Positions 1-3,508 of a DNA stretch of 7,185 nt are shown piece by piece. Each line of letters begins with the position of its first letter. Positions within the stretch are counted from its first letter, which is position 1. The notes beneath the pieces were generated by a model. That model was not told where the DNA came from, searched no databases, and saw nothing but the letters and a program-made list of their open reading frames with translations. The DNA is taken from positions 1 through 7,185 of the forward strand of contig JAITAC010000112.1 in the NCBI GenBank assembly GCA_031284345.1. Direction: 5' to 3'. Source of the stretch: Holosporaceae bacterium. Lineage in GTDB: Bacteria; Pseudomonadota; Alphaproteobacteria; UBA3830. Made by a program: the position numbers and the translations under genes.

Positions 1-88
1 AATAGTAAACACCAGTGAGATAATTAATTATTATGGCTATGCCATCGGATATATCACAGAATATTTTTTCTTCGTTAAGCTTGTACAT
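1..88 (-). CDS. PqqD-like protein (RiPP recognition element), N-terminal fragment, cut by window edge
   Basis: Translation from the ATG at 88 gives 29 open codons running off the left edge. It begins MYKLNEEKIFCDISDGIAII and continues INYLTGVYY. The pattern of a short hydrophobic strand, 'DG.AIIIN', then 'TG.YY' is what I know from PqqD-family proteins, which adopt a small winged-helix fold and bind leader peptides (RiPP recognition element), delivering a substrate to a radical SAM or other modifying enzyme. The start is supported by AAAGGA at 95-100, six bases upstream. The start codon lies inside the end of the preceding gene (14-nt overlap), indicating translational coupling with the nucleotidyltransferase/HPr-kinase-like gene. 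Only about a third of a typical PqqD domain is visible, so the family call rests on motif resemblance plus the neighbouring radical SAM gene. It could also be the N-terminus of a larger protein. Confidence 0.6.
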   Translation of the reverse strand, partial: MYKLNEEKIFCDISDGIAIIINYLTGVYY

Positions 89-2315
89 ATTGTTTCCTTT
101 CATTATTCCAATTAACTTCATTAAGTTCATTTATGAACTCGCGCAAAATATTCACATTTGCTTCAAAATCCGGAGATAAGTTTATTTGATAGAAATCCAA
201 ATCCTCTATGAATGACAAAACGTGCTTCATGTATTCAGCTGTATTGCTACTACAAGTAAATTGACGTATAGGTTCCCAATCATCCTTAAGATATATTGCA
301 TAACTCAGGTATCTAGGATGGATTTTACTGCACATCTGAGAAACAGTGGAGTACGCCATCTGCACAACGGCTTTGCCCCTATTGATTTTTTCTATGCTCG
401 GTTTTTCTATGCCAGCTATATGGGGAAAAATTGCCGTTTTTATCGGCAGCGCTTTTACGAATCCAGTATGATGCGTCGATAAATCGATTATGTGCTTTGT
501 ATTGTTCCAATTATTGTTGAGAAATTCGTAGTGTAGTCCGTTCAGCTGCGAGATTATGCGGGGTGCCAGAGAGGATACAGAATATATGGGATAGGCGTGA
601 AGTCCATTTTTTTTATCTAGCACAAGATAGTCTTCGGACACAAATTCGAATCCGTCCAATAATGCCGATACCGCCAGTGTCGATTTGCCGGCGCCGCCTC
701 TGCCGCAAATGAGAACGCCAGTTCCATTAATTCCCACTGCCGCAGAATGAAACATAGCGGTGGTGTTGTCGCCGATGATATTGTTCAGGAAACACACAAA
801 CAAATGTTCTCCCCACAAATCGGTAATTTTTTCCTTTGACATGTCGCTGGAGGCAAAATAGTGGGTGCGCGTTTGGGCATCGTAGGCCTTGATGACGTTT
901 AACAACTTATAAAATTCTATTTTGGATGCAGAATTGTCTTCGGATCGGTATGTCATGCAGTAGCAATTGCCAATGGCCAGTTGTCTGATATGGGAGTCAA
1001 TGTCTTCCTCCCAAAAACGAACGGCTACGTCATAGGGACCGCGAGCTTCGTCTGCGATATAGGCAAATTGTTTGTCCAAGAGTTTACGGAGATGCGGCAG
1101 ATAGCATTCCAACTTAACTATTTTGGGGCCAAGATGCAAATGGCGCACCCATTTTTCTTTTTCAATGCCTGCATTGTTCAATCGATTCCAATGGCGATTC
1201 ATTTCTTCTGCTGATAAAATCTGCTCTGGAAAATATTTTTTAAGCTTTTCATTCATAGTATTGTCATCTTCCTTGGAATTCAGTATCGGGTCTTGAAATA
1301 TGTATAATTTTTCGGTTTTGTCATTATTTGATTGTTTTGTTTTTTGGCGTAATTGATCTCGCATTCGGAATAATTTTATGATTTTCATATCTCTTTTTAT
1401 TTTGGCGTCGGCATTCGGGTCTTCGAAGGCATTTATTTGCGCCAGAAAGTCCTGCGGGAGTATATGTGGAAGGGATTCATCAAATATTTCCAGTAAAATT
1501 TTTATAGAATAGAGTGTGTCTGTTTGGGTTGCATTGTCTATTATGATGCTCCAGTCGATGCTGTTACTTTTTGCAAGTGTAGCGATGTCATACATCCAGG
1601 AAATACTCATTGCCGATGTCGGAAATTCGCTTGTATCCCAGAAAAAATCATCATATATCATATTGCCGTAGAAATTTATCAGAGTCGAGAATATCAGATC
1701 TTCCGGAATCGGAATAAATGCGTTTACGCCAAACGCTCTGACCTCCCTGGCCGATTGCCATATTCTTTTGTCAGCGGCACTATCTTCTTTCACAATGATG
1801 GAATGTATGTCTATTTTCATATTGTCGCCAAAGCACATGTCTGTGGAGTGCAGTCCTTTGAATGTAGCGGAAGCTCCGAGATTTTCAGCGGCTTTTACGG
1901 TCTCATCAAAGCGATCCCGGGGCACGGAAAAATCGATGTCGTACATGTGTCTCGGATATTTCTGATATAAATAGCGCATGGCGAGTCCTTTTATCATTAA
2001 AATTGGAATTCCTCGCCGATTGAGCTCTTGTCCAATTCTGTGAAATCCTTCCAAAAGCTGCACATTGCCGTACTGAAAATATCTCACCACTCCCTTGAAT
2101 TTCGGCAAAAGAGGATGATTTATTTCCGCATATCTGCTTACTAAAGATGACAGCATAAAATTTATAGCCAAATGTTCATCATGTATTTTGTATTTGGGTA
2201 ATAATGCCATTATGTCTTCTGTTTTGGCGTTATCGGTCACCATTAATCTCAGCAGATCTATGTCTTGTTTTCTAAAGTCCAGTTGCTCTTTGAAAAAATC
2301 TGCACAGGTTGTCAT
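75..2315 (-). CDS. Fusion protein: NTP_transf_5-type nucleotidyltransferase + HPr-kinase-like P-loop domain
   Basis: A 746-residue protein with two recognisable parts. Residues about 100-175 match the 'uncharacterised nucleotidyltransferase' (NTP_transf_5, PF14907) pattern: GIPILMIKG, then YDIDF with D126 and D128 as the expected metal-binding pair, then KIDIH (D169) as the third acidic position. Residues about 500-650 resemble HPr kinase/lasso-peptide-kinase-like domains: a Walker A GRGGAGKST at 538-546, followed by SED at 560-562, where the acidic residues of this family usually sit. A charged, low-complexity stretch around 330-390 probably links them. Both catalytic cores look intact. Such kinases and nucleotidyltransferases, usually separate genes, occur in lasso-peptide and PqqD-containing clusters; some lasso homologues phosphorylate the precursor peptide. 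The start at 2315 is preferred over an in-frame ATG at 2384 because it has GGAG seven bases upstream and avoids a 67-base overlap with the radical SAM gene. The substrate is unknown. No signal peptide or membrane segment is evident. Confidence 0.8.
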   Translation of the reverse strand: MTTCADFFKEQLDFRKQDIDLLRLMVTDNAKTEDIMALLPKYKIHDEHLAINFMLSSLVSRYAEINHPLLPKFKGVVRYFQYGNVQLLEGFHRIGQELNRRGIPILMIKGLAMRYLYQKYPRHMYDIDFSVPRDRFDETVKAAENLGASATFKGLHSTDMCFGDNMKIDIHSIIVKEDSAADKRIWQSAREVRAFGVNAFIPIPEDLIFSTLINFYGNMIYDDFFWDTSEFPTSAMSISWMYDIATLAKSNSIDWSIIIDNATQTDTLYSIKILLEIFDESLPHILPQDFLAQINAFEDPNADAKIKRDMKIIKLFRMRDQLRQKTKQSNNDKTEKLYIFQDPILNSKEDDNTMNEKLKKYFPEQILSAEEMNRHWNRLNNAGIEKEKWVRHLHLGPKIVKLECYLPHLRKLLDKQFAYIADEARGPYDVAVRFWEEDIDSHIRQLAIGNCYCMTYRSEDNSASKIEFYKLLNVIKAYDAQTRTHYFASSDMSKEKITDLWGEHLFVCFLNNIIGDNTTAMFHSAAVGINGTGVLICGRGGAGKSTLAVSALLDGFEFVSEDYLVLDKKNGLHAYPIYSVSSLAPRIISQLNGLHYEFLNNNWNNTKHIIDLSTHHTGFVKALPIKTAIFPHIAGIEKPSIEKINRGKAVVQMAYSTVSQMCSKIHPRYLSYAIYLKDDWEPIRQFTCSSNTAEYMKHVLSFIEDLDFYQINLSPDFEANVNILREFINELNEVNWNNERKQYVQA

Positions 2316-2317
2316 TG

Positions 2318-3280
2318 CTATGCTCCAATTTCGTTTGGGGTTATGAAGGCGTCGTGCCACACAAATTGTCTGTAATGCCAACAAAGACAGCAGGGCGATT
2401 CTTCACATATTTCATCTCCCATAAGCATTTTTTTTGTTTTTTGCACGACTTCGGATTCCAGACATTTTTTCAATCCCAGCTCGAAGACATTGAGATCGGA
2501 AATGCCGGTGCCATTGTAAGAGCATCCCAAAAATTTACCATCGTAATTTATGGACGGAAATTTCCACAGATCTAAACAGGGAGGATTGGCAGTTCTCGTA
2601 AAATTATCTTCATATTCGAAGGTGGTTTTGGGATAGGCGAGCCCGGTTTCTTCGTAGATCATGTCGGTGTCTTCGGGAATGTAGTAAAAAACACGGTCTT
2701 TGCAAAAATATAAAGTTGCATCTAGGTCTTTGGCCATTTTTTTGGCGGCCTGAAGTTCTTCTCGGGAAGAATTATGTTTAAATATTTGATATAGCAAATT
2801 CACCAGTGGGAAATTGCTAGAATATGTTTTCTTGCATATCCAAAGCTTTTTTATGTTGTTAATTACTGTGGAAAAGTTTCCGCCGTGCCTATACTTTTTG
2901 TAGGCTTTTTGATTGACGGCGTCCACATTTATGGATAATGCAAGAAATTTATTGACCACCAGGGACTCAATGACAGCATCAGATACAGTATTGAAATTAA
3001 CGCCGTTCATTGCCGTAAGCAAGACGTTTTTAGCCCGAGCAAATTCCATGATTTTTGATAAATCTGGATTGAGAAAAATTTCTCCGCGATTCGCAATTTC
3101 AATTCTCTGCACAAACGGATTCATTTCGACGAATTTTACGAAATCATCAAATTTTAGACATCCTTTTCCGAAATCGCCGTAGTCGCCTTTTCCAACGGAG
3201 CATTCTGGGCAGGAGAGTTGGCAAAATGTACACGAATCCAACCTGACGCCATTTGGTAGAGTCTCCTGCAGCAAGGACAT
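2318..3280 (-). CDS. Radical SAM protein with SPASM-like C-terminal domain
   Basis: A 320-residue radical SAM enzyme. The cluster-binding motif CxxxCxxC is at C20, C24 and C27 (CQLSCPEC), with an extra C17. It is followed by the TIM-barrel features RIEIANRGEIFLNP (about 79-92), which I recognise from peptide-modifying radical SAM relatives, and 'LSINVDAVNQKAYKKYRHGG'. The C-terminus has C235-x12-G248-x4-C253, matching the first half of a SPASM auxiliary-cluster motif (Cx9-15Gx4C). The second half is unusual: C292, C297, C298 and C300 instead of the canonical CxxCx5CxxxC. SPASM enzymes act on ribosomal peptides or proteins in RiPP pathways, which fits the PqqD-like gene two genes downstream. 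The next ORF starts two bases after its TAG stop. The ATG at 3280 is supported by a strong ribosome-binding site. Substrate and reaction (thioether, C-C bond, epimerisation or other) cannot be deduced. Confidence 0.85.
   Translation of the reverse strand: MSLLQETLPNGVRLDSCTFCQLSCPECSVGKGDYGDFGKGCLKFDDFVKFVEMNPFVQRIEIANRGEIFLNPDLSKIMEFARAKNVLLTAMNGVNFNTVSDAVIESLVVNKFLALSINVDAVNQKAYKKYRHGGNFSTVINNIKKLWICKKTYSSNFPLVNLLYQIFKHNSSREELQAAKKMAKDLDATLYFCKDRVFYYIPEDTDMIYEETGLAYPKTTFEYEDNFTRTANPPCLDLWKFPSINYDGKFLGCSYNGTGISDLNVFELGLKKCLESEVVQKTKKMLMGDEICEESPCCLCWHYRQFVWHDAFITPNEIGA
2323..2326 (-). promoter_or_regulatory. Ribosome-binding site fixing the start of the fusion gene
   Basis: GGAG (minus strand) sits seven bases upstream of the ATG at 2315 and lies within the last codons of the radical SAM gene. 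It favours a 746-residue product starting MTTCADFF over the longer 769-residue reading from 2384. Confidence 0.6.
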
Positions 3281-3283
3281 AAA

Positions 3284-3478
3284 CTATACTCCCCTGTGGG
3301 AACTGTTCACAAACTCTGTTTTTTCGGTATTTTTTGCGCCAAATATACTGCTGGTTTGCGCTATTTTTCCATAAAAAATTCTCGAAAAATCCAGTTGGTA
3401 AACGGTCCTTAAATTAACCATAATGGGATAATTGAGATATTTCACGTTTGCGTGTAGGATCCCAATAGCCCTTAACAT
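3284..3478 (-). CDS. Small uncharacterised ORF at the head of the radical SAM operon (candidate precursor peptide)
   Basis: The ATG at 3478 gives a 64-residue basic peptide beginning MLRAIGILHANVKYLNY and ending EKTEFVNSSHRGV. I recognise no family. It has no cysteine, no obvious signal peptide and no double-glycine leader motif. Its TAG stop is three bases before the radical SAM ATG, and the radical SAM ribosome-binding site lies in its last codons. This is the usual position of a RiPP precursor in such operons, and several serines near the C-terminus would be possible substrates for an HPr-kinase-like partner. Against it, there is no Shine-Dalgarno sequence before the ATG at 3478, before the TTG at 3484, or before the internal ATG at 3421 (45-residue version), and the composition is not clearly coding. 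It may instead be a structured untranslated leader that is open by chance. Confidence 0.35.
   Translation of the reverse strand: MLRAIGILHANVKYLNYPIMVNLRTVYQLDFSRIFYGKIAQTSSIFGAKNTEKTEFVNSSHRGV
3289..3295 (-). promoter_or_regulatory. Strong ribosome-binding site of the radical SAM gene
   Basis: AGGGGAG lies eight bases upstream of the ATG at 3280 and overlaps the final codons of the small upstream ORF. It is the clearest Shine-Dalgarno sequence in the accessory operon and supports both the start choice and translational coupling. Confidence 0.7.
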
Positions 3479-3508
3479 TATCAAAGAATCGAAAATAATT
3501 TAAATAAA

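What the first reader, a model, noticed from the sequence alone, without database searches (positions are those of the whole stretch)
1..3478. Radical SAM/SPASM + nucleotidyltransferase-HPr-kinase fusion + PqqD-like operon: a likely RiPP or protein-modification system
Junctions of 3 nt, 2 nt and a 14-nt overlap tie a short ORF, a SPASM-like radical SAM enzyme, a two-domain nucleotidyltransferase/HPr-kinase-like protein and a PqqD-like protein into one operon next to alphaproteobacterial housekeeping genes. Each component is known from RiPP pathways, but I do not recognise this exact combination as a characterised system. An AT-rich alphaproteobacterium carrying it is notable because reduced genomes tend to lose such clusters.
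Basis: partly seen in the sequence, partly recalled or inferred. Interest (0 to 1): 0.75.

Follow-up and report, generated by a model that had tools for sequence, protein, structure and literature searches.

The report
Peptide-recognition protein carrying its own substrate
A small-genome alphaproteobacterium carries a gene set, whose core recurs in many bacterial phyla, in which a peptide-recognition protein ends in a strongly conserved tail that is likely the very peptide its partner kinase, nucleotidyltransferase, sugar transferases and (here) radical SAM enzyme would modify.

Summary
The operon is real, but its leading 66-aa ORF is not a gene: it lies on a dispersed repeat. The window ends inside the operon; a contig sharing 119 exact end bases gives a 145-aa PqqD-type RRE protein and a double GT2 glycosyltransferase. 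The RRE protein has an undescribed tail, in distant members [YFW]xxPxLxx[FY]xDMQxLLLxDPIH[DE]VDxxGWP. AlphaFold2 orders its first, lasso-leader-like part and leaves DPIH..GWP loose. In 24 of 24 relatives from named genomes (a dozen major groups) the gene lies near NTP_transf_5 nucleotidyltransferase and HprK-like kinase genes, in 22 near GT2s. Tail-only profiles found every significant tail fused to an RRE in the genomes searched; a few free-standing tails in a protein catalogue stay unresolved. Best explanation: an RRE fused in cis to its own leader and core, predicted to be phosphorylated and glycosylated, with a lineage-specific radical SAM step (3 of 3 carriers). Closest published systems are LPP and phosphorylated lasso peptides, which have separate precursors. 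No Ser/Thr of the tail is invariant, so the chemistry, and a docking role instead, stay open. New variant of a known kind.

The parts
2318..3280 (-). Radical SAM/SPASM-like enzyme, 320 aa; CQLSCPEC (CX3CX2C), C-terminal Cys 235, 253, 273, 297, 298, 300 kept in all three lineage members
   Evidence: (TIGR04317 E 1e-11, far below its cut-off)
75..2315 (-). Fused nucleotidyltransferase (NTP_transf_5, about nt 1491-2120, DID motif kept) and HprK-like kinase (P-loop GRGGAGKST; His and Lys kept, SED in place of the relatives' DD)
   Evidence: separate genes in the other cassettes seen, G002 excepted
2..88 (-). First 29 codons of the tailed RRE (PqqD-like) gene; whole gene is C8:6882-6445 (L007)
1..119 (.). 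Exact overlap with the end of contig C8 (C8:6795-6913); the operon continues there with the RRE tail (C8:6567-6448) and a GT2-GT2 gene (C8:6439-4985)
3299..3412 (.).

Best explanation
The window holds the front of an operon (radical SAM enzyme; fused nucleotidyltransferase-HprK kinase; RRE protein with a conserved C-terminal tail; double GT2 glycosyltransferase on the adjoining contig) that likely makes a modified peptide from that tail, which is predicted to be a leader and core fused in cis to the RRE that binds it. Shown: the operon, the domains, the tail and its conservation, and the recurrent cassette NTase + HprK + tailed RRE + GT2. Predicted (AlphaFold2): the first part of the tail (FEMKLTEYSDIQ here; YxxPxLxxF in distant members) is an ordered strand on the RRE, as a lasso leader would be, and the DPIHDV..GW.P part is free. 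Inferred: the HprK domain phosphorylates the free part or something joined to it, the NTase and GT2s build sugar on it (as PsmK and PsmN appear to do on pseudomycoidin), and the radical SAM enzyme adds a lineage-specific change. Whether the peptide is later cut off, or stays on the RRE as a modified protein, is unknown; no peptidase or transporter gene was seen in this operon.
For: Tail: present in 66 of 66 PqqD hits (biased, as hits must share short words with the query). In the ten alphaproteobacterial proteins found by the whole-protein profile and reaching into the tail, the 22 tail columns (mean top-residue share 0.64) are better conserved than the RRE (91 columns, 0.45) or the linker (18 columns, 0.39), three shortened tails included; same in 16 sequences, six of them found through the tail (0.63, 0.42, 0.32). 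Leader-like [YWF]xxPx[hydrophobic]: 8 of the ten, 10 of 16; LPP and lasso leaders bind RREs through [Y/W]xxP (PMC13381572, passages). Two AlphaFold2 models agree: tail strand at 113-116 and 114-117 in blocks of pLDDT 85 and 93, the last 25 and 13 residues at 47-56; best PDB matches are lasso B1 proteins solved with leader peptides (5v1v, 5v1u, 6jx3). Cassette, within 6 kb on either strand: HprK 24, NTase 24, GT2 22 of 24 loci in named genomes, the two misses at contig ends; 7, 7 and 10 of the ten alphaproteobacterial loci. Control: 20 of the 47 tail-less PqqD places: GT2 near 1, HprK 13, NTase 5; a lasso-cyclase-like SGGxDS ORF of 618-643 aa in 11 of 20, in 0 of 39 cassette-related loci, where 3 have a 389-392-aa SGGxDS ORF. 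Compact operons L028, L041 and L042 show no other ORF of 60 aa or more in the run. Tail-only profiles: every significant place fused to an RRE. G002 has tail-less RRE, GT8 and tailed RRE in one protein.
Against: No invariant Ser, Thr or Tyr in the free part: 30 of 66 and 73 of 120 sequences have a Ser/Thr in its first 16 residues, whereas the known lasso/LPP kinases use a fixed Ser. The free part is much the same across phyla, unlike the variable LPP C termini. This lineage has SED where 21 of 21 aligned relatives have DD in the kinase. Of the ten alphaproteobacterial loci one (L086) has neither HprK nor NTase nearby, and three tails stop at DPPLP. In close relatives the YxxP Pro is replaced (3 of 66 match the motif). 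Small ORFs under 60 aa in the relatives' operons were not examined. Some catalogue proteins look like free-standing tails. No product is known.
Confidence: 0.5

Rival explanations
1. The tail is a docking or presentation motif, not a substrate: the RRE protein uses it to hold the kinase, NTase and GT2s together while they act on a substrate in trans (a surface polysaccharide precursor, a lipid or a protein).
For: No invariant phosphate acceptor; the same motif across phyla; neighbours in some loci are sugar-polymer genes (bacterial sugar transferase L028, pyruvyl transferase L035, GT4 L083, ABC exporter L035 and L045); LPP and paeninodin clusters often lie in capsule loci (PMC13381572 Discussion).
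Against: The leader-like first half and the free second half look like a RiPP precursor; no other candidate substrate ORF of 60 aa or more lies in the compact operons, and clustering of neighbours found no further family shared by more than 5 of the 24 loci.
Confidence: 0.33
2. An ordinary LPP-like or lasso-like RiPP pathway with a separate precursor elsewhere in the genome; the RRE tail is only a flexible or autoinhibitory extension.
For: HprK, NTase and RRE are the LPP and phosphorylated-lasso tailoring set; RREs recruit leaders in trans. The genome was not searched for LPP-type leaders.
Against: No lasso peptidase family PF13471 in G000, G002 or G010 (0 of 3); no cyclase-like ORF by the lineage loci; the tail is better conserved than the RRE.
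Confidence: 0.12
3. A decaying horizontally acquired cluster in a reduced genome, no longer working in this organism.
For: Patchy: in 3 of 11 same-genus genomes and none of the other order members searched; on two contigs in G010; kinase SED change.
Against: The frames are open and the fusions intact; the fused gene is 78% and the rSAM 90% identical between G000 and G002, with the motif Cys kept.
Confidence: 0.05

Closest known systems
Linear polyphosphorylated peptides (LPP; Popov et al. 2026, PMC13381572; outline, passages and Discussion read)
   Same: RRE, HprK-like kinase and NTP transferase gene set; YxxP leader motif; no cyclase; link to sugar-polymer loci
   Different: LPP has separate precursor genes with variable C termini and a fixed Ser3, a SpI-like peptidase and an MsbA-like exporter, and is described as restricted to Bacillota; here a leader-like stretch is fused to the RRE, the end is conserved, GT2s are regular partners, and no peptidase or exporter was seen in the operon
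Phosphorylated/glycosylated lasso peptides (paeninodin PadeK/ThcoK, pseudomycoidin PsmK/PsmN; review PMC9266682, passages)
   Same: HprK-type kinase with His-Lys-Asp-Asp residues and an annotated nucleotidyltransferase tailoring a peptide; discrete B1 RRE
   Different: No B2 peptidase family in the three lineage genomes, no cyclase-like ORF in the lineage loci, no separate precursor seen
SynChlorMet cassette (ScmC HprK-like, ScmD PqqD-like; its radical SAM members are recalled, not from a call)
   Same: HprK-like + PqqD-like (+ radical SAM) combination; weak matches to TIGR04249 and TIGR04248
   Different: Those scores are far below cut-off; NTase, GT2s and the tail are not part of that cassette as recalled
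RRE-enzyme fusions (RRE-Finder PMC7470986; structure-based RREs PMC12710340; passages of both)
   Same: RREs fused to glycosyltransferases were noted, and 21% of PF05402 proteins exceed discrete RRE size with no other Pfam annotation
   Different: Fusion there is to an enzyme; here it is predicted to be to the peptide itself. The passages read describe no RRE-precursor fusion

Membership tests
LPP RiPPs | RRE + HprK-like kinase + NTP transferase | tested here: met
   the kinase and RRE are below their Pfam cut-offs and rest on motifs, relatives and fold
LPP RiPPs | separate precursor gene with YxxPxV leader | tested here: inconclusive
   none seen in the operon; the short ORF is a repeat; the tail-only profile finds only the RRE protein in G000; the genome was not searched for LPP leaders
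LPP RiPPs | SpI-like leader peptidase | not tested
   none seen among the operon ORFs; genome not searched for it
LPP RiPPs | MsbA-like exporter in the cluster | tested here: not met
   no such ORF in the operon; it is followed by metF and metH
Lasso peptides | B2 leader peptidase (PF13471) | tested here: not met
   0 of 3 lineage genomes; drafts of 80-91% completeness
Lasso peptides | asparagine-synthetase-like cyclase | tested here: inconclusive
   no SGGxDS ORF of 250 aa or more in the lineage loci; motif scan only, genomes not searched
HprK-like peptide kinases | catalytic His-Lys-Asp-Asp | tested here: inconclusive
   H, K and second D kept, first D is E here; DD in 21 of 21 aligned relatives
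NTP_transf_5 (PF14907) | score over gathering cut-off, DxD kept | tested here: met
   75.6 against 31.2 bits; DID in the window; a D-x-D by pattern in at least one NTase copy of 21 of 24 relatives' loci
PqqD/RRE (PF05402) | score over gathering cut-off | tested here: not met
   15.2 against 23.4 bits for this protein; a distant relative scores 53.5 and the model matches lasso RREs
Radical SAM/SPASM maturases | CX3CX2C and C-terminal auxiliary-cluster Cys | tested here: met
   motif read in sequence, Cys invariant in three members; no family model over its cut-off

The most novel reading that the evidence does not exclude
A widespread, unnamed RiPP class in which recognition element, leader and core are one protein: the RRE holds its own leader-like strand and offers an almost invariant DPIH[DE]VDxxGWP core in cis to a kinase, a nucleotidyltransferase and glycosyltransferases, giving the same phospho-glycosylated peptide, or a permanently modified carrier protein for a surface glycan, across many phyla.
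Probability: 0.35. Interest if true: 0.83.

Novelty: new variant of a known kind. Interest (0 to 1): 0.66.

Why it matters
If right, RRE-guided peptide modification exists in a self-contained form, which searches that look for separate small precursor ORFs would miss. The near-constant core across phyla would point to a shared cellular role (cofactor-like, or a glycan carrier) rather than a variable antibiotic. Crinalium epipsammum PCC 9333, a named cyanobacterial strain, carries the cassette on a plasmid, so the idea can be tested.

Tried and rejected
Short ORF 3284-3484 as precursor: rejected. rSAM as core of the system: rejected as general, since of 23 cassette genomes searched 3 had any match, none shown beside the cassette (one match is cut by a contig end, so undecided there). 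Lasso relic: not supported. Free-standing tail peptides: the protein search with the tail gave 288 short hits, of which 120 were listed and read; many begin inside the last RRE helix and look like pieces, but some on long contigs (P0113, P0117, P0217, P0171) look free-standing; their context could not be read, so this stays open. Solved-structure sequence searches gave only weak HPr kinase hits for the fused protein (E 0.06) and nothing relevant for the rSAM. Paper searches: the motif strings DPIHDV, DPIHEV, ADPIHD in 0 papers of the library; searches on the combination. PMC7533575 (passages) reports nucleotidyltransferase, HPr kinase and GT2 genes in Butyrivibrio fibrisolvens lasso clusters; whether tailed RREs are among them was not checked. 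Plasmid searches found one record.
Full report
What is there. All genes named here lie on the minus strand: rho (6532-5276), thyX (5124-4207), rpe (4195-3560), then the operon in question; families by Pfam, tRNA-Phe at 6723-6648. The radical SAM ORF is 3280-2318, the fused nucleotidyltransferase/HprK-like ORF starts at 2315 and ends at 75, and a third ORF starts at 88. The window is contig C18 of a draft of 1.05 Mb in 137 contigs, 88% complete. Window 1-119 is identical to the last 119 bases of contig C8 and matched no other place in that search, as adjoining contigs of a short-read assembly often do (inference); the gene order in G002, on one contig, agrees. C8 holds the whole third gene (145 aa) and then a 484-aa protein of two GT2 domains, then metF and a split metH.

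The short ORF. Window 3299-3412 matches other places of the same draft at 78-89% identity (C68, C60, C83; a 38-bp weak match at C105); at C60 the copy lies beside an integrase-core (rve) ORF. The 66-aa ORF on it has no counterpart in front of the rSAM gene in G002 or G010. It is not a precursor candidate.

The tailed RRE protein. The 145-aa protein scores under Pfam's cut-off for PqqD, but 66 proteins with E up to 0.01 (itself included) were found, many marked PF05402. All 66 share a C-terminal motif DP[IV]H[DE] with a Trp close behind. Those hits share short words with the query, so this alone is biased. A whole-protein profile search of 385 alphaproteobacterial genomes gave matches in 34; besides our own, ten places in eight genomes reach into the tail. 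They were fetched and ten of ten are tailed, three with a shortened end DPPLP. In these ten the tail columns are the best conserved part of the protein and 8 of 10 carry the YxxP-type motif. The reverse test, a profile of the tail alone, found in the same 385 genomes 11 places inside RRE-protein frames and two weak matches (E 6e-4 and 0.005) in frames of 761 and 449 aa that I take for chance; in 398 genomes of the phylum six places, our own and five in frames that carry an RRE by profile; and in 316 genomes of the phylum of L047 three places, all in frames with an RRE by profile and with HprK and GT2 beside them. No free-standing tail was seen there. The protein catalogue does contain short tail proteins, many of which look like cut-off pieces; some may be real.

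Structure. AlphaFold2 on the window's protein (30-row alignment) gives the RRE, a linker, an ordered stretch with a strand at 113-116 and a weakly supported helix at 119-124, then a loose end. A Bosea relative with 23 rows gives the same: strand 114-117 right behind YEAPSV, helix 120-126, loose from DPIH on. The two alignments share some rows. The top PDB matches are lasso-peptide B1 proteins that were solved with leader peptides. LPP and lasso leaders bind RREs through [Y/W]xxP (PMC13381572, outline, passages and Discussion seen; PMC12710340, passages). I infer that the first half of the tail is an in-cis leader and the second half the core. I could not inspect coordinates.

The cassette. One scan of named genomes, seeded by the peptide LLADPIHD, gave 43 stretches, of which 24 encode a relative, from Elusimicrobia, Deferribacterales, Verrucomicrobiales, Dysgonamonadaceae, Selenomonadales and other Firmicutes, Chlamydiae, Uhrbacteria, Paceibacterota, Bosea, Kiritimatiellota, actinobacteria and Sumerlaeia by record title; most are metagenome bins, so single assignments may be wrong. 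24 of 24 have HprK and NTase relatives within 6 kb and 22 have GT2s, in a few loci on the other strand; the two without GT2 (L033, L036) end at the cassette. The profiles were built from these loci, so the ten alphaproteobacterial loci are the fairer test: HprK 7, NTase 7, GT2 10 of 10; L086 has neither HprK nor NTase, and L081 is cut by its contig. In 20 loci with tail-less PqqD proteins, taken from the 47 such places, GT2 was near in 1, HprK in 13 and NTase in 5, and 11 have a lasso-cyclase-like ORF of 618-643 aa against 0 of 39 cassette-related loci, 3 of which have a shorter SGGxDS ORF (some of the 39 overlap). So kinase and NTase are shared with lasso clusters, while the tail goes with the GT2s. 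Compact operons (L028, L041, L042) leave no other ORF of 60 aa or more in the run; shorter ORFs were not examined. Fusions tie the parts together: NTase-HprK here and in G002 (separate in G010); GT2-GT2 here, three GT2 stretches in L034 and four in L032; RRE-GT8-RRE+tail in G002. Crinalium epipsammum PCC 9333 has PqqD-family protein, nucleotidyltransferase, HPr kinase, FkbM methyltransferase and glycosyltransferase genes in a row on a plasmid.

The radical SAM enzyme. It has CX3CX2C and conserved C-terminal Cys, and no family model reaches its cut-off. In 49 genomes of the order it is found at full strength only in G000, G002 and G010, with four weak matches (E 1e-8 to 7e-4) elsewhere; the same three genomes hold the NTase/kinase genes among the 45 order members, and in all three it is directly before the NTase part. 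A fourth genome, FACS1894122, has both a tailed RRE and this rSAM by protein name, on different contigs. Of 23 cassette genomes elsewhere 3 had any match, not shown beside the cassette. It is a lineage-specific partner.

How it most likely works. In lasso clusters HprK-type kinases phosphorylate a Ser of the precursor, and PsmN, an annotated nucleotidyltransferase, is needed for hexoses on the phosphate, though an E. coli glycosyltransferase could not be excluded (PMC9266682, passages); in LPP clusters LppK phosphorylates Ser3 of a linear peptide. By analogy the HprK and NTase domains here would prime the free tail and the GT2s extend it. Against this, no hydroxyl residue of the free part is invariant; the near-invariant residues are Asp, Pro, His and Trp. 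A docking role remains the main rival. The kinase of this lineage has Glu for the first Asp of the DD pair.

Novelty. The library searched has no paper with the motif strings, and the searches on the combination led to the LPP, lasso and RRE papers named above, in which the passages read describe no RRE fused to its own precursor. One of them notes that 21% of PF05402 proteins are longer than a discrete RRE with no other Pfam annotation; the tailed proteins fall in that gap. I file this as a new variant of a known kind.

Noticed in passing
window 3299-3412; C60:704-836, C68:6015-6087, C83:3318-3442, C105:1005-1042: Dispersed repeat of about 110 bp (C105 match short and weak), at C60 beside an integrase-core ORF fragment.
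   Followed up: partly
L024:9363-11018 (G002): RRE, GT8 glycosyltransferase and tailed RRE in one 551-aa frame; the first RRE has no tail.
   Followed up: partly
L083, L085, L087 (G306, G210, G382): Cassettes whose tail stops at DPPLP, without HDV..GWP; only one GT2 was found near each, though some full-tail loci also show one.
   Followed up: no
L035:5524-6693, L037:9440-10618, L038:9417-10592: 389-392-aa ORF with an SGGxDS motif directly after the RRE gene; the L035 copy has no Pfam family.
   Followed up: no
L007:725-3815: Methionine synthase split into a main protein and a separate protein with the activation domain.
   Followed up: no
L028:10781-11626: A different radical SAM gene on the opposite strand just after the cassette; related ORFs lie nearby in L029 and L030.
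   Followed up: no
L025:8770-11400 (G010): 876-aa ORF rich in Ser and Pro next to the split cassette, no Pfam family.
   Followed up: no
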